From Nitrospirales bacterium LBB_01 (GTDB taxonomy: Bacteria > Nitrospirota > Thermodesulfovibrionia > Thermodesulfovibrionales > Magnetobacteriaceae): 64,000 nt of DNA. Location of the stretch: NCBI GenBank assembly GCA_004376055.2, contig CP049016.1:3100001-3164000 (forward strand), given 5' to 3'. A model generated the notes under the pieces. That model was given only the letters and a program-made list of their open reading frames with translations, did no database searches and had not been told where the DNA came from. Below, in pieces: positions 2,058-60,866 of this stretch (position 1 is its first letter; each line of letters opens with the position of its first letter). Position numbers and translations under genes: made by a program.

Positions 2058-2071
2058 GTGAGAAACGAGCG

Positions 2072-2894: not shown

Positions 2895-3001
2895 GGATGC
2901 ATTACCCTATCCTTACCCTTATACTAACAGACTAAATAATTTCAGAGGGCTATACCTTAAGTCCACTAAAAGTGGTCTTGACAATGGGGTCCACTATAAC
3001 C

Positions 3002-3242
3002 CATCAACATCATAAACGCTTTACTGCTTGCGATTTACTTTATATCCTGCTCGGAAAAGAATGTAAACCATTGTGCGGCTTCCATACCATGGATGCATTG
3101 TGTACTGCTCATCTATTGCCCTCATCACCTTCAAATTCTCCTCGCTCTCCGGTACTGCCTGACGATAATAACTGGAGCGTGGAAGGCTTAGCAGGTTACA
3201 CTGCTGACGAATACTCAATTCCTTATTTGCTGGCTCTATCAT
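3002..3242 (-). pseudogene. IS3-family OrfB, 5' part of outer copy
   Basis: This encodes the N-terminal HTH region of OrfB (start MIEPANKELSIRQQC) in reverse orientation. It is cut at 3001 by the inner element. Two single G deletions relative to the inner copy (in the AAGCGAG and TTTGATG stretches) shift the frame near 3016-3030. The remainder of the gene is at 1118-1696. Confidence 0.82.
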
Positions 3243-3252
3243 CGCTCGTTTC

Positions 3253-3546
3253 TCACTTACCGTTGCGCAAGTAACAGGCTCTTTTTAGCCAGTCCACTTC
3301 TACTTGCAACTTCCCTATTTGACTATATAACCGCTCTCGCTCTGATTCATATGCCGCCTGAGAATTTTCTTGCACTCCATTAAATAACGTTGACGCCCCT
3401 TCTACTAAATGCTTTTTCCATTCATTCACCTGGTTCACATGAATATCAAATTCCTGCGCTATCTCATTGGCTGTCCTCTGACCTTTGAGCGCTTCTATTG
3501 CTACTTTTGCTTTGTACTCTTTGCCAAACTTCCGTCTGTTTTTCAT
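3253..3546 (-). CDS. IS3-family transposase OrfA (outer copy)
   Basis: It is identical to the inner OrfA over most of its length, with the same N-terminal helix-turn-helix, but it ends in a different C-terminus because the poly-A tract has five A instead of nine. That places orfB in the +1 rather than the -1 register, so the normal OrfAB fusion cannot form. The unfused OrfA could still be made and act as a repressor or end-binding protein; this is family knowledge, not shown here. A TCCTCCC (reverse of GGGAGGA) ribosome site precedes it. Confidence 0.8.
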   Translation of the reverse strand: MKNRRKFGKEYKAKVAIEALKGQRTANEIAQEFDIHVNQVNEWKKHLVEGASTLFNGVQENSQAAYESERERLYSQIGKLQVEVDWLKRACYLRNGK

Positions 3547-30673: not shown

Positions 30674-31462
30674 TTAGTGTTCCTTTTTCTTGTCCAATTT
30701 GCCCATCAGCTTAAGGGTGTATGAGACAAGATGCCATCTCTTTTCTTCATTAAGTGTATCCTCGTACGAGGGCATTCCTGTTCCATCAAGTCCGCTTGTA
30801 AACGTCATGTAGATAGCCTCAGGAGTTGAACCTCTTTTGAGTTCTCCGGTTAAGAAATTAAAGGGCAAAATAGGAAAACCCCAGTCATCCTTAATGTCGT
30901 TAGACTTAGTACCGTCTCCCTTACCTGTTTCCCCGTGACACTCCCAGCATTTCATATTTTTATAAATTGTCTTTCCTTGAATTACTGAGTCTGGCGAACC
31001 TACCCACGGAGGTTTAACCGTTTTAATAGCATCACACGATTGGTCCTCAGCAAATCTTGACGAAAATGTCTTTATATACGCTCTCAACGCCTTTCTTTCC
31101 TCAAGCGGCAAATCTTTTAGACTTGTCATAAAAGACCTTGGAACGCCATTGGTTATCGTAGCAAGGAGGTCGTCATCAGTCGGTAAACAACCGGACGATG
31201 TGGTGCGAAATCTGTAAAGACCAAGCGTAAAATCACGCGGGCGTATTTCAAGCACGCGGCCACTCAGTTCCTGTTTTCTAAGCACACCGACCGCCCCATT
31301 GCCGTCTCCTTTTTTACCATGACACGGCATACAGCGATGAGTATAAATCTTTTCACCCAGCTTGACATCCGCGCCGTCATCTGCTCCCACTGAGGCAGCG
31401 ACCCCTATGTTAAGAAAAAACATACATAGCGCTGCAATTAATATATATTTCAGTCTCTTCAT
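30674..31462 (-). CDS. Di-haem cytochrome c, exported
   Basis: About 262 residues from the ATG at 31462 (MKRLKYIL), which follows GGAAGGG; the ATG six codons upstream has no such site. A signal peptide covers residues 1-25. Two CxxCH haem sites: CMPCH near residue 45 and CWECH near 170, each in a class I cytochrome c fold with a distal Met-containing segment (GTGMPSYEDTL for the second). It is the last gene of the quinol-oxidase-like operon and probably carries electrons from the six-haem subunit to a periplasmic acceptor. Confidence 0.88.
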   Translation of the reverse strand: MKRLKYILIAALCMFFLNIGVAASVGADDGADVKLGEKIYTHRCMPCHGKKGDGNGAVGVLRKQELSGRVLEIRPRDFTLGLYRFRTTSSGCLPTDDDLLATITNGVPRSFMTSLKDLPLEERKALRAYIKTFSSRFAEDQSCDAIKTVKPPWVGSPDSVIQGKTIYKNMKCWECHGETGKGDGTKSNDIKDDWGFPILPFNFLTGELKRGSTPEAIYMTFTSGLDGTGMPSYEDTLNEEKRWHLVSYTLKLMGKLDKKKEH

Positions 31463-31546
31463 ATAGTCCCTTCCTTGCATTTAACTATTGTAAGTTGTGT
31501 CAGGGCACAATACCCCTGTTTTAGCGTATACTCCAGGCTTGTCGTT

Positions 31547-32962
31547 TTATTTGGCAGCACTTGGGAACTCCTTTATGAAAGCAACCACGTCGGCAACATC
31601 CTGTTTGGTTAACACCTCTGAATCCTTAATAAATGGAGGCATAGACGTACCGGCTCTGCCGTCAGCGATAGTTACGGCAAGCAGTTCTGTATCTATTTTC
31701 TTCTGAACCACCGGAGACCTCAGGCTTATACCGAGTAGGTTCTCGCCGCCTTTGGCATCTTTACCGTGGCATACCGAACAGTTTACCTCATACACTTCCT
31801 TACCATGCTTTACGTCACCCGTAAACGCCGCTAAACCAAAAGGCTCATGCTGTTCAGCAGGTCTTTTAAGCGCCAAATAACCGATTATTTCTTTTATTTG
31901 CTCATCGCTAAGTCCTGCTGCGGAGCTCTTCCATGCTGTCATCTGAGTGCCTGCTCTGCCCTCTTTTACGATTACATCCATGTTGGCATCGTTCATCGTC
32001 CTTAAAAGCGAGGGATTCTTTATAGCAGGCACGGTGCGTTTGAACACCTCATCGTAGATGGTCTTGTCTCCGTCCTCGTGGCAAGCGCTGCAGTACATCT
32101 TGTATAAAGCCTCTCCGTCATACTTAGGCGGGTTGGCATAATTTATGCGCCTATATTTTTTGGGCATCTCCTCCGATTTTAGCGACAACGCATACGTTGT
32201 CAACAAATCGTCCTCACCGGCAGCCAGTTTAACTTTCATAGCAGATTCGGCCACTAAAGCACGAGGATCGACAAAGTGCTGTTTTAGCCAGTTAAACACC
32301 GTGCGCTCCCCTATGACGTGTTTCATCGGGAAATAGGCTATCGGCTGGTTTCCAACACCATCCAGCGCCTTACCAATGTCGCCGCCTACGCCATCAATCT
32401 TATGGCAGCCCTTGCAGCCCTTCTCTCTAAAGAGTTCTTCTCCTTTAGCCACCTTTTCGCCGCCATTTTTAGCAAGCATATTGAAATCGTGGCACTGCGC
32501 ACATGAGCTTTGAACGTACTTAAGCGGCAGTATTGGATAGTCCCAGTGGGTTTCATGTCCTTTGCCGTGCGCTTCTTTTTCATTTGTCGCAAAGCTCTGG
32601 CCATCGTGACACACCGTGCAGCCAAACTTATCAACAGGGTGGTTAACAAGGTAATTGCCGCTGTGTTTTTTAAACGGCACCTTAGCGCCCTCCATCAGAG
32701 GATTATCCACTCCCGCATGACAGTTTATACAGCGGTCTTCTCTTTTTAAATCTTTTAGGTAAACTTGCTTAAACCCAAGCGTCATAGCCATTGCTCTTTT
32801 CCGTGTAGCATCGTCTTTAGCATTTTTGACCACTAAGTCCTTATACTCGGCTTGATAGTATTTCCACTCAGGCATGACCGCATGATATGCCGTTAATCCT
32901 AAGTAAGAAATGACAAGCAGCCCGGATATCAATAATAGGGACAAATAAAATCTACTGTGCAT
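31547..32962 (-). CDS. Six-haem cytochrome c, membrane-anchored
   Basis: A 471-residue protein with an N-terminal membrane anchor (residues 5-28) and six CxxCH sites near residues 76, 116, 154, 184, 290 and 396 (CINCH, CTVCH, CAQCH, CKGCH, CSACH, CSVCH). The first two sites sit in a multihaem-like arrangement; the last ones resemble separate class I domains. In the operon it follows cytochrome b and takes the place of cytochrome c1/f. The order of transcription is flavin/FeS subunit, Rieske, cytochrome b, this protein, di-haem cytochrome, with short gaps. It should accept electrons from the Rieske centre on the outer face of the membrane. Confidence 0.92.
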   Translation of the reverse strand: MHSRFYLSLLLISGLLVISYLGLTAYHAVMPEWKYYQAEYKDLVVKNAKDDATRKRAMAMTLGFKQVYLKDLKREDRCINCHAGVDNPLMEGAKVPFKKHSGNYLVNHPVDKFGCTVCHDGQSFATNEKEAHGKGHETHWDYPILPLKYVQSSCAQCHDFNMLAKNGGEKVAKGEELFREKGCKGCHKIDGVGGDIGKALDGVGNQPIAYFPMKHVIGERTVFNWLKQHFVDPRALVAESAMKVKLAAGEDDLLTTYALSLKSEEMPKKYRRINYANPPKYDGEALYKMYCSACHEDGDKTIYDEVFKRTVPAIKNPSLLRTMNDANMDVIVKEGRAGTQMTAWKSSAAGLSDEQIKEIIGYLALKRPAEQHEPFGLAAFTGDVKHGKEVYEVNCSVCHGKDAKGGENLLGISLRSPVVQKKIDTELLAVTIADGRAGTSMPPFIKDSEVLTKQDVADVVAFIKEFPSAAK

Positions 32963-33015
32963 TTTTTACCTCATCTTTTTTATTATTCAAGTCCATTTAT
33001 CAGTTCTTGTCGCCA

Positions 33016-34572
33016 TCAGTGTATTGGCCACTGGCTCTTAGACCAGTAAAATCCCCAGTTTGGGCCTCTCATCTCGGTTGCAAAGTAAGTCAAAATCACA
33101 TAGCTGACCAAAAACATGACAAACAGCGCCATAGCGCCCATTCTGGTTGAGCCTGTTCTTTTTATGACAAACAGAGACCACAATATCATAAATCCTACCC
33201 ATATACTGCCGGGATTTATTAGGGTTATGACCAACTGCGGAATTTCTGGAAACCAATTCCTGAGCCAGCCAAAGTTCACCGCAAAGACCAGCATTCCTAT
33301 AATGACTATAACACTGATTATAAATGACTCTACGGCTATCTTTTTTCCAGTGCTATCGGTAAACCACACACCCACCTTGTACTGTTCCCTGTCAAGATAT
33401 GGGATGAGGGCAAGACCAAGCAGTGCAGCAGAGGGCAGCCCCACACCTCCCATAAAAGCCGAATAGGACAGCAGCTCCTGAAGGCCAAGGAAATACCACG
33501 GCGCTTTTGCAGGATTTTCAGGAATCAGCGCATTTGCCATCTCCTTAAGCGGCGCATCTATATAGTAAGAGTAGATTAATACGCCGGCCAATGTGACCAT
33601 TAACACTGCCAACTCGGCTATCAGAAGATTAGGCCAGCTCATGACCGTGTTTTCAATGTCTTTGTCAACAGCTGGAGTTTTACCCTTAGCAAGCTCCATA
33701 AGTCCGTAGGTCTTGTGAGTGGGGAAAATTCCGCTTGTTTTATCCGGCTCAAGCACATAGCCGATGTCGCTGTTTCTTACTGAGAAGTCCTCAGGCTTTG
33801 TGAGGCCTCCGTCTTTGCGAATTCTCCAAAAGTGAATGCCTACAAAAACTGAGATTACAATTGGAAGGAGCATGACGTGAAACAGATAGATTCTGTTTAA
33901 GGACTCTTTGCCAGGGTTTAAACCGGCAAAAACAAAGTCTGTCGTAAATGTGCCGACATCAAAGAATTTGGTTAACCCGAGCGAGTCGGTAAGCTCTTTG
34001 GGCGACATCATTATATTTGAGACAATGACAGTAGCCCAGTATGAAAGTTGGTCCCACGGCAGCAGGTATCCGGTCAGGTTAAGAGCAAACGTTAAAATCA
34101 GAAGCACGATACCTATCAGCCAGTTGAACTCCCTGCCTGCCTTATAAGAGCTTGTGAAAAACACCCTTGCCATGTGTAAAAACAGAAAGACAATCATTCC
34201 CTCGCCGGCCCACTTGTGAACGTTTCTTGCTACCTTGCCGCCAAAGACAACGTTGTTAATGTTTTTTACCGTTTTGAAGGCATTTTCTAACGAGGGGTTA
34301 TAATAGACCATAAGAAAAATGCCCGAGGCTACTACAATCAAAAACAGGAACAGCGCTATAAGCCCCATCCCCAGCGTGTATGAGGGGCGAAGGGTGTTGA
34401 TATGGGTTTTAACGCCCTGAATGTGCATAAAGAAGTTATTATAGATAACCGACGCCCTTGCCTTGTCAGAGGATGGCTTGCCGCCTCTGAAAACGGAGCT
34501 TGTGAAGGAATCGGCTAATGTCTTTAAATTCCCTGTGAATTTGGAAATTCCCGATTGTCCAGTTTCGTTCAT
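33016..34572 (-). CDS. Cytochrome b of a Rieske/cytochrome b complex (fused b6-subunit IV type)
   Basis: A 518-residue integral membrane protein with about 12 hydrophobic segments. The haem ligands are spaced His-X13-His (HKWAGEGMIVFLFLH) and His-X14-His (HVMLLPIVISVFVGIH); the X14 spacing in the second helix is of the b6 type. The quinol-site motif usually PEWY appears as KAPWYFLGLQELL, as in several Gram-positive and anaerobe complexes. It oxidises a low-potential quinol, passing electrons to the Rieske protein and through the b haems. The extra C-terminal helices fit a fusion of cytochrome b6 and subunit IV. It lies 21 bases after the Rieske gene. Confidence 0.93.
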   Translation of the reverse strand: MNETGQSGISKFTGNLKTLADSFTSSVFRGGKPSSDKARASVIYNNFFMHIQGVKTHINTLRPSYTLGMGLIALFLFLIVVASGIFLMVYYNPSLENAFKTVKNINNVVFGGKVARNVHKWAGEGMIVFLFLHMARVFFTSSYKAGREFNWLIGIVLLILTFALNLTGYLLPWDQLSYWATVIVSNIMMSPKELTDSLGLTKFFDVGTFTTDFVFAGLNPGKESLNRIYLFHVMLLPIVISVFVGIHFWRIRKDGGLTKPEDFSVRNSDIGYVLEPDKTSGIFPTHKTYGLMELAKGKTPAVDKDIENTVMSWPNLLIAELAVLMVTLAGVLIYSYYIDAPLKEMANALIPENPAKAPWYFLGLQELLSYSAFMGGVGLPSAALLGLALIPYLDREQYKVGVWFTDSTGKKIAVESFIISVIVIIGMLVFAVNFGWLRNWFPEIPQLVITLINPGSIWVGFMILWSLFVIKRTGSTRMGAMALFVMFLVSYVILTYFATEMRGPNWGFYWSKSQWPIH

Positions 34573-34593
34573 ATTTAAATCCTCTCTTATTTA

Positions 34594-35073
34594 TTAACTA
34601 AATCTATTTTTTGTGCCCGCAGGGACTTCACGCGATGAGTCAACAACAAGGCTGCCATCTACGTCCTGAGTGATCTCATACCACGGCAGGCCTCTGGGCG
34701 CAGGGCCTGATATCACCTTTCCGACCTGATTGTACTTTGAGCCGTGGCACGGGCATTGAAACCCGGTATCTGTCTCGTAAACCAGACACCCCAGGTGTGT
34801 GCAAACGCTGGATATAGCGTAAACACCGGCATCGTCTGAGACAATAAAGACCTTCTTATCGGCGATGTTTCTGAAAGTACCTACGGGGAAGTTTTCCGGT
34901 TTACCTATCTTGAAACTGCGTGCCTCCTCATAGCTGGCATCGGACTTGAAAAATCTGAAAACACCGGCTACAATCCCCAAAAGCGCTAAAGCGCCGGTGG
35001 CCAGAGCCGAGATAGTCAAAAAATCACGTCTCGATACTTTTTCGTCCTTTTCCTGTACGTCTTCACTCCTCAT
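34594..35073 (-). CDS. Rieske iron-sulfur protein
   Basis: About 159 residues from the ATG at 35073, which follows AAGGAGG by eight bases and overlaps the upstream stop by 11 bases; an upstream ATG at 35097 lacks such a site. It has a Tat-type N-terminus (SRRDFLTISALATGALALLG) serving as membrane anchor and a Rieske [2Fe-2S] domain with CTHLGC and CPCHGSKY ligand boxes, followed by GPAPRGLPWY. It carries electrons from quinol at cytochrome b to cytochrome c in the periplasm. Confidence 0.95.
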   Translation of the reverse strand: MRSEDVQEKDEKVSRRDFLTISALATGALALLGIVAGVFRFFKSDASYEEARSFKIGKPENFPVGTFRNIADKKVFIVSDDAGVYAISSVCTHLGCLVYETDTGFQCPCHGSKYNQVGKVISGPAPRGLPWYEITQDVDGSLVVDSSREVPAGTKNRFS

Positions 35074-36901
35074 CTTTGTACACCTCCTTGAAAGCAAATC
35101 TTTCCATGGTTATAGCGTTAACAGGGCAGCGGTGAGCGCAAAAGCCGCACCGTATGCATCTGTCCTCATCTTTTATGATAGCGGAGCCGGTTGATCCCTC
35201 TGGGAGTTTACCGTAACGGTTTACATATAGAGCCGTCAAAGTCTCATTCCCTTTGATCTTATCCAGTCCGACCAATCTCAGGCAATACTCCGGGCACACA
35301 TCGGCGCACCCGCCACAAAGAATACATCTGTCTCCGTTAAATATCGTGTTTACGGCACAGTTTAAACACCTGTCGCCTTGCTCATGGGCAGCGTCCTCCC
35401 TAAAACCGGTCTCAACAAGGTTCATTATATTTTTCACCCTCTCTTCAACCGGAGCCGCAGGAACGTGCGCACGTTCTATTTTTTCATATTCAGCTATATG
35501 ATCCACCTTGTTGTCGGCAACCTCACCCTTGCGAAACTCAGCATGTACTTCGTATGTTTTTAATTGCAAATTCCTACCGCTTATATACTCGTGAATCTTT
35601 AGCGCTGCCTTTTTCCCGCTTGCTACAGCATCTATCACGAGTTTTGGGCCATAGGCAACGTCACCTGCCACAAAAAGTCCGTCCAACGATGTGGAAACGC
35701 GGTCTTTGTTGACGCTTATCATGCCGCGCTCTGTCATACTGATGTCCAACCCGCAATTTGACAGGAAAGATAAATCAAAAGCCTGACCGATTGCAAACAT
35801 TACCGTATTGGCAGGCAGCGTTATTATGTCATCCTCGTCATATCTGGGATTAAACTTTCTCTCGCTGTCAAACAGTGAGATGCATCTTTTAAACATCATA
35901 GAGACGGCTTGGTTTTTTTCGTTGAGGTTTATCTTTAGAGGTCCGTAGCTGTTAATTCTCTCAACACCCTCCTCCTCCGCCTCCTCAATTTCTATCTTAT
36001 CGGCCAGCATCTGTTCAAACGCCTCTATGCAGACCAAAGTGACCGAATTTACCCCTTTTTGTCTGACAGAGGTTCGGGCAACGTCGTAAGCGACATTACC
36101 GCCGCCTATTACTACAACATCGGGCCCAATGGTGACATCCTTACCGCAAAACACATCCCTCAGAAAATTCACGCCGCCGATAACCCCTTGTCCTTTTGCT
36201 CCTTCAAGGGGGAGCATTCTGGAGTTCTTAGCGCCAACCGTAATCACAACCGCCGAGGAATTGTCGTATAGCTCTTTGATACTGACGTCTTTTCCCACTG
36301 TGACACCGAGCTTTATCTCCACCCCGAGAGCCATTATGGCGTCAATTTCCGCCTGAAGGATTTCTCTTGAGAGCCTATAGGGAGGAATACCAACGGCACA
36401 CATGCCGCCTGCGATATTTTCCATCTCATAGATGACAGGTTTGTAGCCCATGAGGGCAAGTTCGTGAGCACAGGCAAGACCTGCGGGTCCCGCTCCTATT
36501 ATGGATATGGGTTTGGAATCATCCCCGGCAATCCCCATTATCCCTGAGCCTTTAGAGCGGAGCTGCTGTTTCAAATTATCTACAAATTCCCCTTTATCCG
36601 CATACATCTCCGTACCGTACTTTTCGGTTACAAATCTCTTAAGCGCTCTGATTGATACGGCAGCGTCAATGCCCTTTCGTCTGCAGGCAAGCTCACAGGG
36701 CGCTGCGCAGATTCTGCCGCATATAGAGGCAAGAGGATTAGGGGTCCTGGCTATCCAATACGCTTTTTCATAGTCTCCATCGGCAATTGCTCTTACATAA
36801 CCTCTGGAGTCGGTGTTGACAGGGCACCCGGTCTGACACCTTACATTCTGCTTCCAGTACTTATAGTCCGGAATCACTACCTCAAAAATTCGTTTGATCA
36901 T
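35063..36901 (-). CDS. GltD-like flavin oxidoreductase with ferredoxin domains
   Basis: A 612-residue cytoplasmic protein. The N-terminal region has the GltD-type Cys cluster (CQTGCPVN, ICGRICAAPCELACRR). The FAD site is SIIGAGPAGLACAHEL near residue 133 and the NAD(P) site is VVVIGGGNVAYDVA near 262. A second FAD-binding motif (GLFVAGDVAYGP) follows near 415. The C-terminus has CILCGGCADVCPEYC and CIRCGFCAHRCPVN, two [4Fe-4S] ferredoxin motifs. As first gene of the Rieske/cytochrome b operon it may link the quinol complex to NAD(P)H or ferredoxin. Related gene sets with a pyridine-nucleotide oxidoreductase beside Rieske/cytochrome b are known in anammox bacteria. Its direction of electron flow is unknown. 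Confidence 0.9.
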   Translation of the reverse strand: MIKRIFEVVIPDYKYWKQNVRCQTGCPVNTDSRGYVRAIADGDYEKAYWIARTPNPLASICGRICAAPCELACRRKGIDAAVSIRALKRFVTEKYGTEMYADKGEFVDNLKQQLRSKGSGIMGIAGDDSKPISIIGAGPAGLACAHELALMGYKPVIYEMENIAGGMCAVGIPPYRLSREILQAEIDAIMALGVEIKLGVTVGKDVSIKELYDNSSAVVITVGAKNSRMLPLEGAKGQGVIGGVNFLRDVFCGKDVTIGPDVVVIGGGNVAYDVARTSVRQKGVNSVTLVCIEAFEQMLADKIEIEEAEEEGVERINSYGPLKINLNEKNQAVSMMFKRCISLFDSERKFNPRYDEDDIITLPANTVMFAIGQAFDLSFLSNCGLDISMTERGMISVNKDRVSTSLDGLFVAGDVAYGPKLVIDAVASGKKAALKIHEYISGRNLQLKTYEVHAEFRKGEVADNKVDHIAEYEKIERAHVPAAPVEERVKNIMNLVETGFREDAAHEQGDRCLNCAVNTIFNGDRCILCGGCADVCPEYCLRLVGLDKIKGNETLTALYVNRYGKLPEGSTGSAIIKDEDRCIRCGFCAHRCPVNAITMERFAFKEVYKDEE

Positions 36902-37240: not shown

Positions 37241-38665
37241 TTAAAACATTACTTGAATGCCTGCAGTCATAAACCATGAGGTTTTCATCTGCAGACCGTT
37301 TAGATCCTGAAACAATGGCATACCGCCCTCTACACCTACACTGAATGGACCTTTTGTAAAACTAAGACCAAGTGTACCATCCAGGCGTTGTCCTCCATAA
37401 TTAGACGTCACCGAATCAGGCATAGGAGCGCTTGTGTTTATCTTGGCAATTTCAGTGTCCTCTCCTCTAATTGCGCCGGTGTTGTTGTATGTCAGACGAA
37501 GCCATGTGGCAGCAGGTCCCAGAGCACGTTGGAGCCATGTCATTGCCTTAAAATTATCCCCATAACTCCAACCGTTATTGTTTTTGCCGGTATGCCAGGT
37601 GTACATAGCCTGTCCACCGTAGTTCCAGTTTCCATCGTCTGTTGTTGCAGATACAGTAATGGCGGGTTTTAGGTCAAGAGTTCCATCCCCTGGCTGCATG
37701 TCGTAAGGCGCACGATATGTAGTTTTCATCATTGTGACCTGCTGATTAATGTCGCCAGATGGCAGACTGACTCCAACACTTCCTGTAAGATATTTATTTA
37801 TCTTGTATATACCTCTTAACTCTGAATCTCCAATGCCTTCAGTTTTCATCGGGTCCTCGGTTGTTATGCCTTTTTTTGACATCGGCCCCATATCCATTAG
37901 CATTCCCATTTTATAAGACAAGTAAGTTGTCATTGCCATCACAGTCCATCTGTCCGTAACTCCGTACATTAACATCAACATGTGCATGTCCATTGTCATA
38001 TCGGTAGGGATCATCATGTACTTGTAAGGGGTATTTCTTTTGTATCCAACATCTGACTGACTGACATCAGATGTGCCGTCCCTAAGACCCCTCATGTCCA
38101 TGTGCATATACTTATAATTGACCATCCACATGCCGGCTGGGTGCGTGTGATAGACATCGTCACCAAATGCCGGGTTATATACCAGTTGAGAGCCGGCTCC
38201 CATATTCATGTGCATCATATCGTGCCCGCCATGGGGGGCAGTAGCTGCCTCCTTCTGTGCTGTATCCAATGCTGATTCAAAAGATGTAATATTCCCGCCG
38301 TTTGCTTGCGTATATTTTACGGCATCCTCTTTTTTAGCAAAAGCCCATTTTGCGACAGAGCTCATGACACCCTCCTTAGCTCCCCCAACTACCCAAAACG
38401 CAGCTCTTGCATCAATCAGCTCCTTTGTAACATAATCAGCTGCCTTTAGAGATTCAATTTTAGCATCTGAATGTTCTTTCATATAATTTGCAGTACAATT
38501 AATAGAGCAAAAATCCACCTTTGTGCCGTTAGTATAAACAATCTGCATACGGCTGCGAGCATCCAGCTCCATTCCACAAAAGGTACATTTTCCTGTGTCG
38601 GCAGCTACAGCTGTCACAGAAGCAAGTAACAAATAAGCTGTAAGAATAATAGACATAATTTTCAT
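37241..38665 (-). CDS. NosL-like domain fused to outer-membrane barrel, Met/His-rich
   Basis: A 474-residue exported protein. The signal peptide ends near VAA (residue 22). Residues about 25-150 are a NosL-like metal-binding domain (CTFCGMELDARSRMQ, DFCSINCTANYMKEH). A Met/His-rich stretch follows (GGHDMMHMNMG near 149, then MHMDMRG and MTMDMHMLMLMYG). The remainder is a beta-rich outer-membrane-type domain ending in aromatic-rich strands (WFMTAGIQVMF). NosL normally is a small copper chaperone or lipoprotein. Here the domain sits on what looks like an outer-membrane barrel, suggesting copper capture or delivery at the outer membrane. A GGAGAG site precedes the ATG. Next to a five-haem cytochrome operon. 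Confidence 0.78.
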   Translation of the reverse strand: MKIMSIILTAYLLLASVTAVAADTGKCTFCGMELDARSRMQIVYTNGTKVDFCSINCTANYMKEHSDAKIESLKAADYVTKELIDARAAFWVVGGAKEGVMSSVAKWAFAKKEDAVKYTQANGGNITSFESALDTAQKEAATAPHGGHDMMHMNMGAGSQLVYNPAFGDDVYHTHPAGMWMVNYKYMHMDMRGLRDGTSDVSQSDVGYKRNTPYKYMMIPTDMTMDMHMLMLMYGVTDRWTVMAMTTYLSYKMGMLMDMGPMSKKGITTEDPMKTEGIGDSELRGIYKINKYLTGSVGVSLPSGDINQQVTMMKTTYRAPYDMQPGDGTLDLKPAITVSATTDDGNWNYGGQAMYTWHTGKNNNGWSYGDNFKAMTWLQRALGPAATWLRLTYNNTGAIRGEDTEIAKINTSAPMPDSVTSNYGGQRLDGTLGLSFTKGPFSVGVEGGMPLFQDLNGLQMKTSWFMTAGIQVMF

Positions 38666-38782: not shown

Positions 38783-40060
38783 TTACTGCTTGTGACCCTT
38801 TATGCTCACAAATTTTGAGAACTTACCAAGTTCATATACGGCCTCTTTCACCCCTGGCTCCATAATGAGCGTCAGAGACACATCTACCACTGCATCTTCT
38901 ACATCCTTTGGCAGTTTTATCTCAAACGTCTCCTCGTTAGTCTTAAAGGGCTGCAGTGCAGTGTCCCGCATAAGCGTCAGTTTCCTTAATGAAGCAAACA
39001 CTACCTTGTTTTCGGCATCGCCCCGTTTTTTCTGCGGGTAATAATACTTCGTATCAGTGAAAAGCTCTTTGCCCTCTTTTGATTTAACTCTTACTTTCAA
39101 CAAAAAGTGTTTTGTTGACGGGCAGCCGTCTGTAAATCTGTGTCCGATTTCCTCTGACCATACCTTTGTCTTTACAACGACCATCGGAGTGAAAATCAGC
39201 TCCGGCACTTTTATTTGCTGAGTGTAGGCCATTGCCGATACGTCAAACTTTATGTGCTTTTTCAGTCTGTCAAGCTCATACGCATGGTCTTGATAGTTTG
39301 GCGGAAAACGATGCCCTGTGTTTGAAGCTCTCATGTGGCAGTCCTGACAGCTTTTGTCTCCTCCGTTTGGTATATAGTTCTGCAGCCAGCTGTCAAGGTT
39401 TGATACGCACCACAGCGGCTCTGAGGCAGGGAGGACGAGGGAGGTTATAACATTTGGCCCCTGATGGCACTGTCCGCAAAAAGAGGAATCCTCCATCATC
39501 TCATGACGCTTTGATTTTGTAAATACCGAATCTGCGTGTACGCCGCCGAGATCCTTATTGCCATACACAGTGTCGGGTTCGGGATTGCCGTCTCTGAATT
39601 TCCTTATGATTGAAACCTGATTGTGGCATACGATGCAGTTTATCTGTAATTTATCCAGCACGTCATAGTTCTCTTTTAAAACCGCATCGGCAAGTTCCTG
39701 TGCAGCCTTTTCCGACATCTCTCTAAGCTGAGGCACGTGGCAGACAAAACACGGCATCATGTAATCTTTTATGCTCTTGGTTACTTCATTTGATTTCTTA
39801 AACTCGCCCTTTTCCGGGTTACGCTGCTTAAGATAATCCTGTAGTGTGCCAAGAACCTTATTGAACGGCCCTGTCATCGGCATCGAATGGGCTGCCTTTT
39901 CCCAGTCTGTGTAGATTTGTTCGTGGCACTGCTTACATCGTGTTGAATCATATGCTGTGATTACTTCTTTCAATGTCCCGTACTCTTTTGCTTTTGCTGA
40001 CGCTGGAATCATCAGAGCGCAAATAAAGACAACTGTCGCTATCAATCTAAAAACTCGCAT
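38783..40060 (-). CDS. Five-haem cytochrome c, exported
   Basis: About 425 residues from the ATG at 40060 (MRVFRLIATVV), which follows GAGGAGG; the TTG five codons earlier overlaps that site and is less likely. Signal peptide residues 1-23. CxxCH sites: CKQCH, CFVCH, CIVCH, CGQCH, CQDCH, all in the N-terminal two thirds; the C-terminal 150 residues are a beta-rich domain without haem sites. This resembles multihaem cytochromes of the c554/NrfB-like class with an appended domain. It may pass electrons to outer acceptors or reduce nitrogen or sulfur compounds; the reaction cannot be told. Confidence 0.85.
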   Translation of the reverse strand: MRVFRLIATVVFICALMIPASAKAKEYGTLKEVITAYDSTRCKQCHEQIYTDWEKAAHSMPMTGPFNKVLGTLQDYLKQRNPEKGEFKKSNEVTKSIKDYMMPCFVCHVPQLREMSEKAAQELADAVLKENYDVLDKLQINCIVCHNQVSIIRKFRDGNPEPDTVYGNKDLGGVHADSVFTKSKRHEMMEDSSFCGQCHQGPNVITSLVLPASEPLWCVSNLDSWLQNYIPNGGDKSCQDCHMRASNTGHRFPPNYQDHAYELDRLKKHIKFDVSAMAYTQQIKVPELIFTPMVVVKTKVWSEEIGHRFTDGCPSTKHFLLKVRVKSKEGKELFTDTKYYYPQKKRGDAENKVVFASLRKLTLMRDTALQPFKTNEETFEIKLPKDVEDAVVDVSLTLIMEPGVKEAVYELGKFSKFVSIKGHKQ

Positions 40061-40116
40061 GGATTTCCTCCTCAATGAATTTTATAGCTTTTGATTTGAA
40101 GAAATACTACTGGCTT

Positions 40117-54410: not shown

Positions 54411-57400
54411 TTACCCCAGCTCCTTTTTTATCAATGATTCAAGGTCGTCATCGTTTAAATCATCAATGTAATCCAGATTATCTGACTCTTTCTCTGACAA
54501 AGTGGCAGTATCAAGGTTCTCAGCAGATTCATCATCTGCAAAAAATTCATTTCTCAAATTGTCAGATATAGCTCTTATTGTGGGATAGCTAAAGAGAAAC
54601 CCCACAGGGAGCGCAATGTTAAGCTCTTTTGAAATGAGATTACGAAACTCAACACTCATAAGAGAATCAAAACCCTGCTCCATAATAGGCTCTTCAATAA
54701 AAATATTAGCGTCTCTATCAGAACCGAGTATCCTGTTAACTGCGCCCTTTATATAGGAAACAAGAAGTTCAAGTCTGCTTTCAGAAGATGCCGCTCTAAG
54801 ATTTTTAAGGATGTCCGATTCAGGCACATCTCCTGTATTTAAAGTTTCCGGCGAAGCAGAGCCGGATATTTCAGCATAAAAATATTCTAAAAACCCAGAG
54901 TTTGTTCCTTGAGGAAGCCGTGCTAAGTAAGTATTCCAGTTAAGGTCAATGACGCACGTGTTTGTGTGTTTATCATAAAGAAGTTTTTCTAAAATTGACA
55001 GACCGTCTTTTATTTCTATTTTGTTAAAGCCAATTGCCGCTATGTTTTCAGGTCTCTTTGCAGTCATCCCGGTGCTTGCCCAAATGCCCCAATTAATGGC
55101 AATAGTCCTGATGCCGCACCCTGAGAAATAATGTGCCGCTGAGTTAAGGAAAGTATTTGCGGCGGCGTAGTTAGACTGCCCGGCGCTTCCTAAAACAGAT
55201 GCCGCTGAGGAAAATAGCACAAAGAAATCAATTTCTCTGTTTTCTATAATATTATAAAGATTCCATGTGCCGCTTACCTTTGGCTCCATAACTTTCCTAA
55301 ATCTCTCCGCATTCTGATTTACTATCACACTGTCATCCAAAACACCTGCGGCATGAAACACTCCCCGCACTTGCGGCATTTCCTTATCTATAACGGTACA
55401 TATCCGCTCAACGTCCTTTGTGACAGAAACATCGGCTGACACCACCATCACTCTGACCCCTTGTGCTTCAAGCTGTGAGATTTTTTCACGCGCCTCCGTA
55501 GTTGCCCCATGCCTGCCTGTCAGCACTATGTAAAGCGCCCCTTTTTCCACAAGCCACTGGGATAACTCAAGACCCAGTGCGCCCAGTCCGCCTGTTATGA
55601 TATACGTTGCATCATTACGGATAATCCTTGAAGGAACAGCGTCTATCTTAAGCACTACCTTGCCGACATGTTTGGCTGCTGCCATGTATCTGAAGGCCGA
55701 CACTGCATCGGTTATCGGAAACACTTTGTTAAAGAGCGGTTTTAGCTCCCCTGAGTTTAAATGCGTTGTGAGAGCTTTAAACATTTCTCTTATAATGAGA
55801 GGCGTTCGCTCTGATACCTCACCCATGTCAAAGCTGTGATATGAGACGTCAGGGCGGTGACGTTTTACCTCCTCCTCTGTCCATATACCAATTTTGCCAA
55901 TTTCTATGAAACGCCCGCCATTAGAGAGCACTCTCAGACTTTTAGGGATGTACTCACCATTTAGACTGTTTAACACCATGTTTACGCCACACCCCTGCGT
56001 TATAGTCATTATCTCATCGGAAAAATCAAGACTGCGGGAATCCATTATGTGATTAACACCCTGTGCTCTTAAAAAATCCCATTTGCCGCGGCTTGCGGTA
56101 GCATAAATATCCGCTCCAATCATCTTAGCAATCTGTACTGCAGCACATCCCACTCCCCCTGCCGCCGCATGAATCAGGATGCGCTCCCCGGCCTTAAGTT
56201 TGCCGCACACTATGAGACCATACCATGCGGTCAAATACGTTAGCGGCACTGTGGCAGCATCGGTGAAGCTCAACTTTTCAGGCATCGGCGATGCAAAATT
56301 GCTATTAACTGTCGTGTAGGTTGAAAATGTCCCATTTACCGGAGCCGCTATAACTGAATCACCAGGTTTTATGTCTTTCACAGCGCTCCCTGTGCGGCTG
56401 ACAACACCAGAGCACTCAAAACCAAATATCACGTCCTGTGGAGCCTTATTGCCGCTGTATTCCCTAAGCATTCCAAGAGCGTTCAGCACATCTCTGAAAT
56501 TAAGCCCAGCCGCTTTTACCTCTATCTCAACCTCGTTTTCTGAGGGGTTTCTTCTTTGAGCAGGCTTTAACTTGAGTGCATCCATGCCTCCGTACTCAGT
56601 GAGTTTTAGCGCTGTGTTTTCAGACTCAGCAATAGCCTTACGTCTCTTAAGACGGCAAACAAACCTGATGTCATTTCTCAAAGCCACCTGTTGTTCTTTG
56701 TCACCATTAAATAACTCATTATAAAGAAAAAAAGTTTCGTTCTGAACCGGCATTGCAGGTAAATCAACAAGTTTTGCGGTAAGTTCAGGGTGTTCAAGAA
56801 ACAGTACACGGCCAAAGCCCCACACCGGTGATTGGTATGGGATTATATCTTTCCCCTCATCATCACCAACTTGCCATACCCCGCGGGTTGCTATCATGAG
56901 TTTTACGTTTTCATGTTTCACAAGTGCCTGCACTGTATGAAGCAGCCCAATAACTCCGAGATGGTCAACGCCAAACTCAGAACCGGAAACTCCGGCGCTC
57001 CATAAATAAACAACACCGGTTAGTTTGCCTATGGAGGTAAACAATTTTTCAAAATCACCCGCAGACTGAGGGTTTATCTCATAGTTTTTACCATCGGAAA
57101 GTTCTCTGAATGTGTTTCCAGCTCTTACGAGGACACTCTCTAAGCCGTTTTCCTTAAAAATAGACGTAAGCTGCTCTCCAATGCCGTCTCTGTTGGTAAA
57201 TATTGCCCATTGACCGGTTTTCTCCAGTAATTTTTCAGACTGTTGCGTATCTTTCCTTTCCCAGACAATATCGTAAAGAAAATCATCGTGCTTAGTTTTA
57301 GAGAGGAGTTTAGTACGGTCTGCCTTTTTGGCAGTAAGTCCTTCTATAAACATCACAGGCGCGCCATCCTCTGTAAAGACAGTAAAGTTGAGTTTTATTT

Positions 57401-60400
57401 CATTATCTGATTTAAATATTGTTTTGGCATGGCTCCACAGTTTTGTAACGCTCTGGGGTTTAGTTTGTAATGCGCCAAAGCCCACGGGAAGGAATGTTTC
57501 CTCTGCATCTATCAGTGCGGCGGCTGTCTGAAGCACAGCGTCTATTGCTATTGGATGTATATTGTATTTGGATGAGTCCATTGCCGCACTATCTGAAAGA
57601 CTTATCAAGCTAAGCGCTTCGCCATCTGCGCTCCATAACTTTTGCATTGCCTGAAAGTCAGTCCCATATTCCAGCTCTTGTGAGGAAAATTGTCTATAAA
57701 TACCCGATACATTGTGCTCTTTAGTACAACGTGCTTTTACAGACTCCAGTGATTCAGTTATATCAAAACTACTATTGGAAATTGCACCGTTTACGTGTAA
57801 AATCCACGGCTGGTTGTCATCGGTATTTTCTACTAAACGGCTGAATATTTTAAAAGCAAACTCTCCGTCATTAACAATAAGAGTTTGAACTTTTCGTCTG
57901 TCATTTTCCGAGATTATTAACGGCTGTAAAATACTAAAGTTTTTTAGGGCTATTGTCTCAGATTTAAGTAAATGTTTAGCAGCAGTAAGAGCCATCTCTA
58001 TAAACACTGCGGCAGGTACAACTACGGAGCCGTAAATGCGGTGTTGTTTTATAAAGTCAGGGAATTCATAAGAAAACTCGTTTTCAAAAACTACGTCTCC
58101 AGTTGCTAAAGGAAGTTTCATGCCTAAGAGTGAAAGAGGTGTTTCCGTCATAAACGCTCTTGGTTTAACATCTATCCAGTATCGTTTACGTGCAAATGGA
58201 TAGTTTGGCAGCTCTGCAACTTTTCTATAACCGTATGGAGCGTTAAATTCTTTCCAATTTATATCCATACCGCAGACATAGAGTGCGCCAACGGATTTTA
58301 ACATCTGCCGCCACTCGTTTTGATTCGCTCTCAGACTGGGAAGCCACGCAGTTGCTTTATCATCAATATTTCTTTTTCCCATGCTAAGGAGCACAGATCC
58401 CGGACCAAGCTCCACAAACACCCGGTAACCATCCTTATACAGTGTCTCAATGCCTGAAAGAAACCTCACAGTTCCTCTAAGATGTTTTACCCAGTAGTCA
58501 GAAGACTCTTCGCCGCTATAGTAGCCTCCGGTTATGTTTGATACTATAGGGATTTTGCCTCTGTGATAGACAACTGTGTCGGCGGTTTTAGCGAAGCTCT
58601 CCAACACAGGCTCCATCAAGCGCGAGTGAAACCCGTGTGAAACTACAAGTTCCGTGCTCTTTATACCGCGCTCTGAAAGACGTTTGCATGTTTCCATTAC
58701 GCTATTTCGCAGCCCTGAAATTACAACACTGTCATGCCCATTTACTGCCGCTATGGAAACATCCTCTGAGGTCAACTCCTCCAGCACGACAGTCTCACTT
58801 GCAAACACGGCAGCCATTGTGCCCTCTCCGGGAGCCTCCCACATCAGGCGTCCACGCTTAGCCACAAGCATTAACGCATCCTCAAGAGAAAACACTCCTG
58901 AGACACAAGCGGCAGTGTATTCACCTATACTGTGACCAAGCAGCGCTCCAGGCTCAATCCCCCACGATTGCCACAACTTGTATAAACTGTACTCAAGACA
59001 AAACAACACAGGCTGAGCGTATCGTGTTTCATTTAGAACATCTGCCGATATGCCGCCGTACATCAGTTCCAAAAGCGGCACATCAATATGTTTTAACAGT
59101 ATCTTGTTGCATTCGGTAAGGGTATCTCTAAACACCGGACTGTTTTCGTAAAGGTTCTGCCCCATACCGGCAGTAAGTCCACCTTGTCCCGTAAAAAGAA
59201 AAGCAATTTTCGGATACCCCTGCGGTAATTGGAAGTCATCTTTTGCAGATAACCCACCCAAAATCTCCTCAGCAGTTTGTCCTATCACAAATCTGCGCCT
59301 GTTAAAATGATTTCGTCCAACGTTTGATGTATAACAGAAATCAGAAACTATAATATCGGGTTGTGATGTCAGCAACTCTTTATATCGGACTGTCAACTCT
59401 GAAAGAGCCTCATCGGTTTTAGCCGATAGTGTCAATATGTGAAGAGGGCGATTGAGTCCGGAATCAACAGTTTTATATTGTGGCGACTCCTCTAACACCA
59501 CATGAGCATTTGTTCCGCTAAAGCCAAAAGAGCTGACTCCGGCAATCTTTTTACCGCTCCATGTGCGTTTGTCTGAGGCTACCTCGATAGGTATCGCCGC
59601 CCAGTCAATGTGCGGATTTGGGGTTTTAAAGTGCAGATGAGGGGGAATTGTTCCGTGCTGTATAGAAAGAACTACCTTTATAAGTCCTGCGACACCTGCG
59701 GCAGCCTCAAGGTGTCCGAAGTTTGTCTTTACTGTGCCTATTATAAGAGGGTCTGATTTGCTCTTAACTTTATTAAATACTGCTCCAAGAGAGTTGACCT
59801 CAATGGGGTCGCCAAGTGGTGTGCCAGTGCCGTGTGCCTCTATATAACTGACCTCCGCTGGCTCTACTCCCCCGTCAGAAAGGGCGCTGCGAATTACACG
59901 CCCCTGGGCCGGGCCGCTAGGGACAGTGAGTCCTCCGCTTGGCCCGTCCTGATTAACAGCGCTGCCTCTTATTATAGCAAGTATTTTGTCCCCATCGGAA
60001 AGCGCATCGGAAAGACGCTTGAGCACTACAACACCGCAGCCCTCACCGCGCACATATCCATCCGCACTGGCATCAAAAGTCTTGCACCTGCCATAGGGGG
60101 AGAGCATCCGCGCTCTTGAAAAAATTATATTCGGGGCAGGTATAAGAATCAGATTTACGCCTGCTGCAATTCCCATGTTGCATTCCCTGCGTCTTAGACT
60201 TTGTACGGCAAGGTGTGTGGCAACCAGAGATGACGAACAGGCAGTGTCTATTGACATGCTGGGCCCTGTCAACCCAAAAGTATAAGAGAGACGACCTGCT
60301 GCCACGCAAAGACCTGCGCCTACGCCGCTGTAAGCATTTATCAAACGGGCATCCTGAGCAGTAAATTGAAGAGCACCATACTCAAATCCGCTTATACCAA

Positions 60401-60866
60401 CAAAAACCCCTGTGTTACTGCCATATAGGGTATCCGAGGAAATGGCAGCATTTTCAATAGCCTCCCATGTAACCTCTAATAGAATCCGATGCTGCGGGTC
60501 AATGTTAACGGTCTCCTTTGGGGAGATTCCAAAAAGGTGCGCATCAAATGTATCCACGGAATCCAAAAAACCGCCGTATCGGCAATACATCTTGCCGGGA
60601 GCATCGGGGTCTGAGGAGTAATAATCATCTATATCCCATCGGCTGGCTGGAACCTCAGTTATGGCGTCAGTTCCGTGTTCAAGCATTTTCCAGTAAGAAT
60701 TAGGATTGATAACGCCGCCCGGCAGCCGACACCCTAAACCAATTATTGCTATTGGCTCATGCTGCCTGTACTCCATGCTCTCTAAACGCCCTCTCATGTC
60801 TTTGAGTTCCATGAGAGCCTTTTTCATTAGTGACTGGTTATCCATAAGTATGGCTTTGGAAGACAC
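54411..60866 (-). CDS. Type I polyketide synthase, single fully reducing module
   Basis: A 2151-residue multidomain protein. Docking-like coiled coil (10-35). KS about 36-460 with Cys near 209 (DTACSSSLVATH) and His in EAHGTGTPLGDP and KTNFGHLEAAAG. AT about 560-860 with GHSIGEYTAA near 647 and a HGFH malonyl-type motif. DH about 920-1200 with HRIYGSVVVP near 942 and DAVLQ near 1110. ER about 1490-1740 with HAAAGGVGCAAVQ near 1567. KR about 1755-1940 with ITGGLGALGLELS near 1762 and Tyr in SNYAAANTF near 1900. ACP about 2030-2110 with QGFDSLMS near 2065. No thioesterase. GTG at 60866 or ATG at 60845 could start it; neither has a clear ribosome site. It lies 28 bases after galU. Confidence 0.95.
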   Translation of the reverse strand: MSSKAILMDNQSLMKKALMELKDMRGRLESMEYRQHEPIAIIGLGCRLPGGVINPNSYWKMLEHGTDAITEVPASRWDIDDYYSSDPDAPGKMYCRYGGFLDSVDTFDAHLFGISPKETVNIDPQHRILLEVTWEAIENAAISSDTLYGSNTGVFVGISGFEYGALQFTAQDARLINAYSGVGAGLCVAAGRLSYTFGLTGPSMSIDTACSSSLVATHLAVQSLRRRECNMGIAAGVNLILIPAPNIIFSRARMLSPYGRCKTFDASADGYVRGEGCGVVVLKRLSDALSDGDKILAIIRGSAVNQDGPSGGLTVPSGPAQGRVIRSALSDGGVEPAEVSYIEAHGTGTPLGDPIEVNSLGAVFNKVKSKSDPLIIGTVKTNFGHLEAAAGVAGLIKVVLSIQHGTIPPHLHFKTPNPHIDWAAIPIEVASDKRTWSGKKIAGVSSFGFSGTNAHVVLEESPQYKTVDSGLNRPLHILTLSAKTDEALSELTVRYKELLTSQPDIIVSDFCYTSNVGRNHFNRRRFVIGQTAEEILGGLSAKDDFQLPQGYPKIAFLFTGQGGLTAGMGQNLYENSPVFRDTLTECNKILLKHIDVPLLELMYGGISADVLNETRYAQPVLFCLEYSLYKLWQSWGIEPGALLGHSIGEYTAACVSGVFSLEDALMLVAKRGRLMWEAPGEGTMAAVFASETVVLEELTSEDVSIAAVNGHDSVVISGLRNSVMETCKRLSERGIKSTELVVSHGFHSRLMEPVLESFAKTADTVVYHRGKIPIVSNITGGYYSGEESSDYWVKHLRGTVRFLSGIETLYKDGYRVFVELGPGSVLLSMGKRNIDDKATAWLPSLRANQNEWRQMLKSVGALYVCGMDINWKEFNAPYGYRKVAELPNYPFARKRYWIDVKPRAFMTETPLSLLGMKLPLATGDVVFENEFSYEFPDFIKQHRIYGSVVVPAAVFIEMALTAAKHLLKSETIALKNFSILQPLIISENDRRKVQTLIVNDGEFAFKIFSRLVENTDDNQPWILHVNGAISNSSFDITESLESVKARCTKEHNVSGIYRQFSSQELEYGTDFQAMQKLWSADGEALSLISLSDSAAMDSSKYNIHPIAIDAVLQTAAALIDAEETFLPVGFGALQTKPQSVTKLWSHAKTIFKSDNEIKLNFTVFTEDGAPVMFIEGLTAKKADRTKLLSKTKHDDFLYDIVWERKDTQQSEKLLEKTGQWAIFTNRDGIGEQLTSIFKENGLESVLVRAGNTFRELSDGKNYEINPQSAGDFEKLFTSIGKLTGVVYLWSAGVSGSEFGVDHLGVIGLLHTVQALVKHENVKLMIATRGVWQVGDDEGKDIIPYQSPVWGFGRVLFLEHPELTAKLVDLPAMPVQNETFFLYNELFNGDKEQQVALRNDIRFVCRLKRRKAIAESENTALKLTEYGGMDALKLKPAQRRNPSENEVEIEVKAAGLNFRDVLNALGMLREYSGNKAPQDVIFGFECSGVVSRTGSAVKDIKPGDSVIAAPVNGTFSTYTTVNSNFASPMPEKLSFTDAATVPLTYLTAWYGLIVCGKLKAGERILIHAAAGGVGCAAVQIAKMIGADIYATASRGKWDFLRAQGVNHIMDSRSLDFSDEIMTITQGCGVNMVLNSLNGEYIPKSLRVLSNGGRFIEIGKIGIWTEEEVKRHRPDVSYHSFDMGEVSERTPLIIREMFKALTTHLNSGELKPLFNKVFPITDAVSAFRYMAAAKHVGKVVLKIDAVPSRIIRNDATYIITGGLGALGLELSQWLVEKGALYIVLTGRHGATTEAREKISQLEAQGVRVMVVSADVSVTKDVERICTVIDKEMPQVRGVFHAAGVLDDSVIVNQNAERFRKVMEPKVSGTWNLYNIIENREIDFFVLFSSAASVLGSAGQSNYAAANTFLNSAAHYFSGCGIRTIAINWGIWASTGMTAKRPENIAAIGFNKIEIKDGLSILEKLLYDKHTNTCVIDLNWNTYLARLPQGTNSGFLEYFYAEISGSASPETLNTGDVPESDILKNLRAASSESRLELLVSYIKGAVNRILGSDRDANIFIEEPIMEQGFDSLMSVEFRNLISKELNIALPVGFLFSYPTIRAISDNLRNEFFADDESAENLDTATLSEKESDNLDYIDDLNDDDLESLIKKELG

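What the first reader, a model, noticed from the sequence alone, without database searches (positions are those of the whole stretch)
30674..36901. Rieske/cytochrome b operon with a GltD-like flavin/iron-sulfur module and multihaem cytochromes
Order: FAD/NAD(P)/ferredoxin protein, Rieske, fused b6-type cytochrome b, six-haem cytochrome c, di-haem cytochrome c. The first gene overlaps the Rieske gene and would put a pyridine-nucleotide or ferredoxin-reacting unit on the cytoplasmic side of a quinol complex. Related sets are known from anammox bacteria, but the exact combination here is not one I can match. It may bifurcate or reverse electrons between quinol and NAD(P)H.
Basis: partly seen in the sequence, partly recalled or inferred. 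Interest (0 to 1): 0.7.

Follow-up and report, generated by a model that had tools for sequence, protein, structure and literature searches.

The report
NAD-linked Rieske/cytochrome b complex
A magnetotactic Nitrospirota bacterium carries an unusual version of respiratory complex III with an NADH-handling enzyme predicted on its inner face; it probably makes NADH while feeding nitrate- or nitrous-oxide-respiring enzymes outside, a trick so far proposed only for anammox bacteria.

Summary
In detail: five minus-strand genes (30674-36901) encode a GltD-like FAD/FeS protein, a Rieske protein, a fused b6/subunit-IV cytochrome b, a membrane-anchored hexahaem c and a periplasmic dihaem c. The genome is a Magnetominusculus-like Nitrospirota.

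This is a new variant of the NAD(P)-oxidoreductase-linked Rieske/cytochrome b complexes of anammox Kuenenia. The solved structure closest in sequence to our Rieske protein is Kuste4569.

New here:
(1) The flavoprotein-Rieske-cyt b block is conserved in 40 Nitrospirota loci.
(2) It is often followed directly by periplasmic reductases: NosZ (9 loci), Nar-like (4), Nap/Nas-like (2). The window's own genome has NosZ and Nar-like clusters, each led by a paralogue of the dihaem c.
(3) The flavin subunit has the Lys-ligated cluster of StnC, whose FAD does not bifurcate. It has lost the NADPH-binding Arg pair, with Glu invariant, which predicts NAD(H).
(4) A cytoplasmic linker, KTYGLMEL...SWP, occurs in 40/40 flavoprotein-adjacent complexes and is absent from 11 of 16 others: a candidate docking site.
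(5) Haem cN is lost.

Most likely function: menaquinol is bifurcated at the Qp site, one electron going to periplasmic N-oxide reductases and the other to NAD+. No biochemistry supports this yet.

The parts
35063..36901 (-). GltD/StnC-like FAD-NAD(H) oxidoreductase with four predicted FeS clusters (612 aa), predicted cytoplasmic subunit
   Evidence: Pfam Fer4_20, Pyr_redox_2, Fer4_7; AF2 pLDDT 84.5, best structural match NfnABC/StnABC large subunits Z 34-36 over residues 8-605; invariant K88, E293, C22/26/65/69/73/512/515 and two CxxCxxCxxxC
34594..35073 (-). Rieske [2Fe-2S] protein, TAT signal, CTHLGC...CPCHGSKY (Ser and Tyr of high-potential type); ATG start at 35073
   Evidence: Pfam PF00355; closest PDB sequence 9rk4 = Kuenenia Kuste4569, E 1.7e-24; alignment
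33016..34572 (-). fused cytochrome b6 + subunit IV (518 aa): haem ligands H119/H133/H232/H247, H50 + R252/K253, APWY Qp motif, no haem-cN Cys, five hydrophobic segments in the subunit-IV half
33655..33792 (-). n-side linker of the fused cytochrome b, residues about 261-306, with KTYGLMELAKGKTPAVDKDIENTVMSWP: candidate docking site of the flavoprotein
   Evidence: present in 40/40 flavoprotein-adjacent loci, absent in 11/16 without adjacent flavoprotein; deleted in L098/L099
31547..32962 (-). hexahaem cytochrome c, N-terminal membrane anchor
   Evidence: six CXXCH, hydrophobic segment 5-23
30674..31480 (-). dihaem periplasmic cytochrome c, presumed electron carrier to periplasmic reductases
   Evidence: two CXXCH; paralogues 52% and 58% identical precede nosZ and a Nar-like gene set elsewhere in the genome

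Best explanation
The five genes encode one quinol-oxidising Rieske/cytochrome b complex with an NAD(H)-reacting flavoprotein docked on its cytoplasmic face. Menaquinol is oxidised at the Qp site. One electron goes through the high-potential Rieske protein, the hexahaem c and the dihaem c to periplasmic N-oxide reductases (NosZ, a Nar-like molybdoenzyme). The other goes through the b haems (and possibly an interfacial haem on H50) to the four FeS clusters and FAD of the flavoprotein, and reduces NAD+. Two menaquinols would give one NADH. Shown by sequence: composition, conservation, co-occurrence with reductases, cofactor ligands, the linker correlation. Inferred: physical assembly, topology, electron path, direction of flow, nucleotide used.
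For: 40 loci with flavoprotein-Rieske-cyt b in the same order. Linker motif 40/40 with adjacent flavoprotein vs 5/16 without; three of those five genomes carry the flavoprotein unlinked. Flavin subunit exchanged but kept in L065/L066: it groups with L062/L063 (100/100) while their cyt b stays in the fused clade. NosZ directly downstream in nine loci, 0-40 bp after a dihaem c in the seven measured; Nar-like alpha/beta/gamma/chaperone or Nap/Nas-like genes in others. Own genome has NosZ and Nar-like clusters headed by dihaem c paralogues. CPCHGS in all 22 operon Rieske proteins aligned, with Tyr two residues on in ours; in Kuenenia such proteins measure > +300 mV (PMC12954380). K88 matches StnC K170, an essential Lys beside a non-bifurcating FAD (PMC10482914). 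E293 replaces the NADPH Arg pair in 32/32.
Against: No biochemistry for this complex or, for NAD(P) reduction, any relative. The haem site on H50/R252/K253 also occurs in complexes without flavoprotein, so it does not mark an NAD-directed electron exit. Two genomes (f33; L100, L101) have the linker without a detected flavoprotein of this type, and G213 has a 35%-identical flavoprotein without the linker. The window's operon has no reductase beside it. A working Qn site cannot be excluded. The genome has complex I-like genes, so NADH could be made otherwise. The linker statistic ignores shared descent.
Confidence: 0.55

Rival explanations
1. Same assembly, opposite flow: the flavoprotein is an NADH input that passes electrons into the b haems or quinone pool, making an NADH:quinone/cytochrome c oxidoreductase that feeds periplasmic N-oxide respiration.
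For: Same gene and cofactor evidence fits; flavin/FeS chains are reversible; NosZ and nitrate reductase are electron sinks.
Against: Loses the energy complex I would save; Hauser et al. (PMC12954380) reject it for Kuenenia on that ground. The genome has complex I-like genes. High-potential Rieske signature suits an uphill low-potential branch.
Confidence: 0.2
2. Same bifurcating complex, but the low-potential product is reduced ferredoxin, docking at the C-terminal 2[4Fe-4S] domain, not NADH.
For: Two ferredoxin-type clusters at the C-terminus and loss of the NADPH Arg pair. Related Nitrospirota magnetotactic bacteria are reported as Wood-Ljungdahl/rTCA autotrophs (PMC11344931), which need ferredoxin.
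Against: The FAD and GGGNVA nucleotide motifs are conserved. In the AF3 models of PMC12954380 the FeS clusters trace a path from cyt b to FAD. Ferredoxin (about -400 mV or lower) is far from menaquinol.
Confidence: 0.12
3. The flavoprotein is a separate cytoplasmic enzyme (GltD/NfnB type) co-transcribed with an ordinary Q-cycle complex.
For: GltD-type fold; NfnB and GltD are structural neighbours.
Against: Lacks the NADPH Arg pair and Glu ligand of NfnB; GltB and an NfnB/GltD-like gene lie elsewhere; adjacency and linker correlation; subunit swap without loss.
Confidence: 0.08

Closest known systems
Kuenenia stuttgartiensis Kuste4569-4574 and Kustd1480-1485 NAD(P)-oxidoreductase-linked Rieske/cytochrome b complexes (Hauser et al. 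2025, PMC12954380; original proposal Kartal et al.)
   Same: GltD-like FAD/FeS subunit with Lys in place of the fourth Cys by FAD; b6-type cyt b; subunit-IV part with five TM segments; multihaem c; His plus Arg/Lys of the proposed extra haem; closest Rieske sequence (9rk4)
   Different: cyt b and subunit IV fused; no haem-cN Cys; hexahaem plus dihaem c and no HAO-like octahaem; linked to NosZ/Nar/Nap-like reductases; predicted NAD-type site. Kuenenia flavoprotein and cyt b sequences could not be compared directly here.
StnABC / NfnABC transhydrogenases, large subunits (8oh5, 9bov, 9n5u; PMC10482914)
   Same: Same GltD fold through the C-terminal FeS region; Lys-ligated proximal cluster; FAD-side Arg; Cys pair placed after the flavin domain
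   Different: No molybdopterin-like domain, no StnA/StnB partners; NADPH Arg pair replaced by x-Glu; partner is a Rieske/cyt b complex
Geobacter extKLMNOPQS Rieske/cyt b cluster (PMC5877670) and NCBIfam diclust_near_Sec
   Same: ExtP/ExtQ-like cyt b halves; multihaem c; an ExtKL homologue lies 2 kb upstream in the window
   Different: Scores far below family cut-offs; ExtKL linkage not kept in relatives; different c-type subunits
Rieske/cyt b complexes encoded with nitrate reductases (Methanoperedens and haloarchaea, PMC4683180; Caldithrix nap cluster, PMC5317091)
   Same: Quinol complex thought to feed a periplasmic-side nitrate reductase
   Different: No NAD-reacting flavoprotein reported in the passages read

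Membership tests
Kuenenia-type NAD(P)-oxidoreductase-linked Rieske/cyt b complex | GltD-like FAD/FeS gene in the Rieske/cyt b operon | tested here: met
Kuenenia-type NAD(P)-oxidoreductase-linked Rieske/cyt b complex | FAD-proximal cluster with three Cys and a Lys | tested here: met
   K88 and C26/C65/C69 invariant in 32 sequences; aligns with the Lys of StnC
Kuenenia-type NAD(P)-oxidoreductase-linked Rieske/cyt b complex | b6-type cyt b with five-TM subunit-IV part | tested here: met
   five merged hydrophobic segments after residue 300 in the window protein; AF2 model too poor to confirm (pLDDT 54.5)
Kuenenia-type NAD(P)-oxidoreductase-linked Rieske/cyt b complex | His and Arg/Lys of the proposed interfacial haem b | tested here: met
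   H50, R252, K253; His-to-Arg spacing 204 in split relatives as in Kustd1481, 202 here; also present in flavoprotein-less complexes, so not diagnostic
Kuenenia-type NAD(P)-oxidoreductase-linked Rieske/cyt b complex | Rieske with redox-raising Ser/Tyr | tested here: met
   CPCHGSKY; potential itself not testable here
Kuenenia-type NAD(P)-oxidoreductase-linked Rieske/cyt b complex | haem cN covalent Cys (present in the Kuenenia models, not defining) | tested here: not met
   Gly at the Cys position in window cyt b and all fused relatives checked
Kuenenia-type NAD(P)-oxidoreductase-linked Rieske/cyt b complex | physical assembly and NAD(P) reduction | not testable with these tools
   needs purification; NAD(P) reduction is also unproven in Kuenenia
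Glutamate synthase small subunit / NfnB | NADPH Arg pair (YRR) and Glu as fourth ligand of the proximal cluster | tested here: not met
   x-Glu and Lys instead; NfnB/GltD-like controls show YRR and LERF
Glutamate synthase small subunit / NfnB | adjacent large subunit (GltB or NfnA) | tested here: not met
   GltB domain at C1:715891-716874, far from the window
StnC / NfnABC large subunit | molybdopterin-like C-terminal domain and StnAB partners | tested here: not met
   612 aa, no Molybdopterin hit; neighbours are Rieske/cyt b
NCBIfam diclust_near_Sec (near Geobacter-type ext operons) | score above family cut-off | tested here: not met
   116.5 against 530 bits

The most novel reading that the evidence does not exclude
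A widespread Nitrospirota respiratory complex makes NADH directly from menaquinol by quinone-site bifurcation, driven by periplasmic N2O or nitrate reduction. It uses a dedicated cytoplasmic linker of subunit IV to dock an exchangeable NAD reductase, in place of a Qn site and haem cN.
Probability: 0.4. Interest if true: 0.85.

Novelty: new variant of a known kind. Interest (0 to 1): 0.62.

Why it matters
Bifurcating NAD reduction by a complex III relative has, as far as the papers read show, been proposed only for anammox bacteria, where the driving acceptor of one complex is unknown (PMC12954380). Here the same module sits beside genes for named high-potential reductases in many genomes, which suggests the driving reactions (N2O or nitrate reduction), a predicted nucleotide (NAD) and a predicted docking segment. 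If true, denitrifying or N2O-reducing autotrophs could make NADH without reverse complex I, changing energy budgets for Nitrospirota N2O sinks.

Tried and rejected
Operon extension upstream to NosL-domain/ExtKL genes: rejected, not next to the module in any relative fetched, and a 340-bp gap separates them. H50/R252/K253 haem site as a marker of the NAD branch: rejected, also in complexes without flavoprotein. Cyt b structure prediction: poor, not used as evidence. Promoter/terminator scan: at chance level. NirS: no hit over the cut-off in the own genome. Literature searches found no report of this flavoprotein-Rieske/cyt b-NosZ arrangement, but the library is open-access only.

Full report
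What is there. Five minus-strand ORFs lie at 36901-30674. Pfam and NCBIfam give a GltD-like flavoprotein with N-terminal Fer4_20, Pyr_redox_2 and a C-terminal two-cluster ferredoxin domain; a TAT-exported Rieske protein; a cytochrome b whose halves match ExtP (b6) and ExtQ (subunit IV); and two c-type cytochromes with six and two CXXCH motifs. The window lies in a single-contig 3.27-Mb genome; the nearest named relative is Candidatus Magnetominusculus sp. LBB02 (83% flavoprotein identity). The Rieske gene probably starts at the ATG at 35073, so the overlap with the flavoprotein gene is 11 bp (sequence).

Distribution. A flavoprotein search of 396 Nitrospirota genomes gave 120 with hits at E <= 1e-60. 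Neighbourhoods of about 50 loci were read. Flavoproteins of this subfamily are followed at once by Rieske and cyt b. The weaker 35-42% group divides: in L074-L076 the flavoprotein is unlinked, L077 has multihaem neighbours without Rieske in the stretch fetched, and the PRK12814-like L079/L080 have no Rieske beside them. A reciprocal cyt b search found fused cyt b of 50% identity or more almost only with the flavoprotein: L097 is cut by a contig end but still shows a flavoprotein fragment of 75% identity. The exceptions are L098 and L099, which have none.

What the high-potential branch feeds. Downstream of the dihaem c gene, nine loci carry NosZ (L008, L009, L043, L045-L048, L050, L054; L048 NosZ scores 830 bits against a 625 cut-off). 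The gap to the dihaem c is 0-40 bp in the seven loci measured. Loci L049 and L051-L053 carry a Nar-like type II DMSO-reductase-family alpha subunit; where the locus extends far enough they also carry beta, EbdC-like gamma and a chaperone. L055/L056 carry a ten-haem c and a NapA/NasA-like molybdoenzyme. The catalytic subunits checked begin with TAT-like signals, hence are probably periplasmic. In the window's own genome the dihaem c has two paralogues (52% and 58% identical), one directly before nosZ at C1:422688, the other directly before a Nar-like alpha/beta/gamma/chaperone set at C1:1796822. The exact substrate of the Nar-like enzyme was not tested. Tat-type NosZ in Nitrospirota is known (PMC11033732), and a magnetotactic Nitrospirota is reported as a nitrate-using, CO2-fixing organism (PMC11344931).

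The flavoprotein. AlphaFold2 gave pLDDT 84.5. Best structural matches are the large subunits of NfnABC (9bov, Z 35.7) and StnABC (8oh5, Z 34.8), covering residues 8-605; NfnB and GltD match only the flavin part. In 32 relatives C22, C26, C61, C65, C69, C73, K88, R176, E293, C512, C515 and both CxxCxxCxxxC motifs are invariant. The profile alignment shows that the segment carrying RCLxC, which in NfnB is N-terminal, lies C-terminal here; C512/C515 are therefore assigned to the first cluster (inference). K88 aligns with the Lys of StnC that ligates the cluster next to FAD; in StnC that Lys is essential and the FAD does not bifurcate (PMC10482914). The Kuenenia proteins show the same three-Cys-plus-Lys site (PMC12954380). 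The YRR that accompanies NADPH use in Nfn and Stn is replaced by a residue followed by x-Glu in all 32; NfnB/GltD-like controls in the same genomes keep YRR and LERF. This predicts NAD(H), at moderate confidence.

The membrane part. Four haem b ligands (H119, H133, H232, H247) and the APWY motif are present. H50 with R252/K253 corresponds by spacing to the extra haem site modelled in Kuenenia (204 residues in split relatives, exactly as His62/Arg266; 202 here), but split complexes without a flavoprotein have it too. The haem-cN Cys of b6f-type proteins is Gly in the fused clade and absent in L062, L063 and L078; it is kept in the split tetrahaem complexes. The subunit-IV half has five hydrophobic segments, as in Kuenenia. 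The Rieske protein has CPCHGSKY and its closest solved relative is Kuste4569 (9rk4, E 1.7e-24; next 5.5e-19); the genome's other cyt b-linked Rieske has CPCHGG.

A docking candidate. The segment between the b6 and subunit-IV halves should be on the cytoplasmic side by b6f topology (established knowledge). It carries KTYGLMEL...TPAV...ENTV.SWP, or a recognisable variant, in all 40 loci with adjacent flavoprotein, fused or split. Of 16 scored loci without adjacent flavoprotein, 11 lack it (Fisher p 3e-8, not corrected for descent). Of the five that have it, three (f22) carry a flavoprotein with the same signature elsewhere in the genome (shown for L103, L104 and L111 genomes by family and handle); the two f33 genomes do not. 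L098/L099, fused but without flavoprotein, have the segment cleanly deleted. G213 is a counter-example in the other direction: a 35%-identical flavoprotein on the same contig but no motif.

Subunit exchange. In L065/L066 the cyt b belongs to the fused clade (99/97 support) while the flavoprotein groups with L062/L063 (100/100): the flavin subunit was replaced, not lost.

Mechanism. With menaquinol near -70 mV, NAD+ at -320 mV and a Rieske protein near +300 mV (values of PMC12954380; potentials here are not measured), one electron per quinol can fall to the periplasmic acceptor while the other climbs to NAD+. Loss of haem cN and the presence of a docked NAD reductase fit an exit of the low-potential electron to the cytoplasm. 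Shown: genes, order, conservation, motifs, reductase linkage. Inferred: assembly, topology, path, direction, nucleotide. NADH input and ferredoxin reduction remain live rivals.

Novelty. The idea of an NAD(P)-reducing Rieske/cyt b complex belongs to the anammox literature. New here are its spread and operon structure in Nitrospirota, the reductase partners, the predicted NAD specificity, the fused cN-less cytochrome b and the linker. No open-access paper found describes the arrangement, but subscription papers were not searchable.

Noticed in passing
window 37241-38665: A NosL domain (residues 24-130) fused to a roughly 340-residue C-terminal part with no Pfam hit (perhaps a beta-barrel); not next to the module in relatives.
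   Followed up: partly
window 38783-40075: Five-haem ExtKL homologue (420 bits, cut-off 250), a family tied in Geobacter to selenite/tellurite reduction; linkage here not conserved.
   Followed up: partly
L098, L099: Fused cyt b complex without flavoprotein: in L098 a TAT-signalled 922-aa Nar-alpha-like protein and a NarH-like FeS protein precede Rieske; the cyt b linker is deleted in both.
   Followed up: partly
L065, L066: Flavoprotein swapped for one from another lineage while Rieske, cyt b and hexahaem c stayed.
   Followed up: yes
L106, L113, L114: Octahaem-c Rieske/cyt b operons with a second Rieske-like gene and a 783-aa molybdoenzyme-like protein, no flavoprotein.
   Followed up: no
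L051:4232-7837: A 1201-aa hydrolase/F5-F8-type protein sits between cyt b and the Nar-like alpha gene.
   Followed up: no
window 54411-60866: A 2151-aa ORF whose start looks like a polyketide synthase ketosynthase domain (read by eye, not tested).
   Followed up: no
window 1764-3546: Transposase-like ORFs whose copies recur in L092, L095 and L096 of the same genome.
   Followed up: no
G000:C1:78094-79920: Molybdopterin oxidoreductase frame with one in-frame TGA, possibly a selenocysteine formate dehydrogenase.
   Followed up: no
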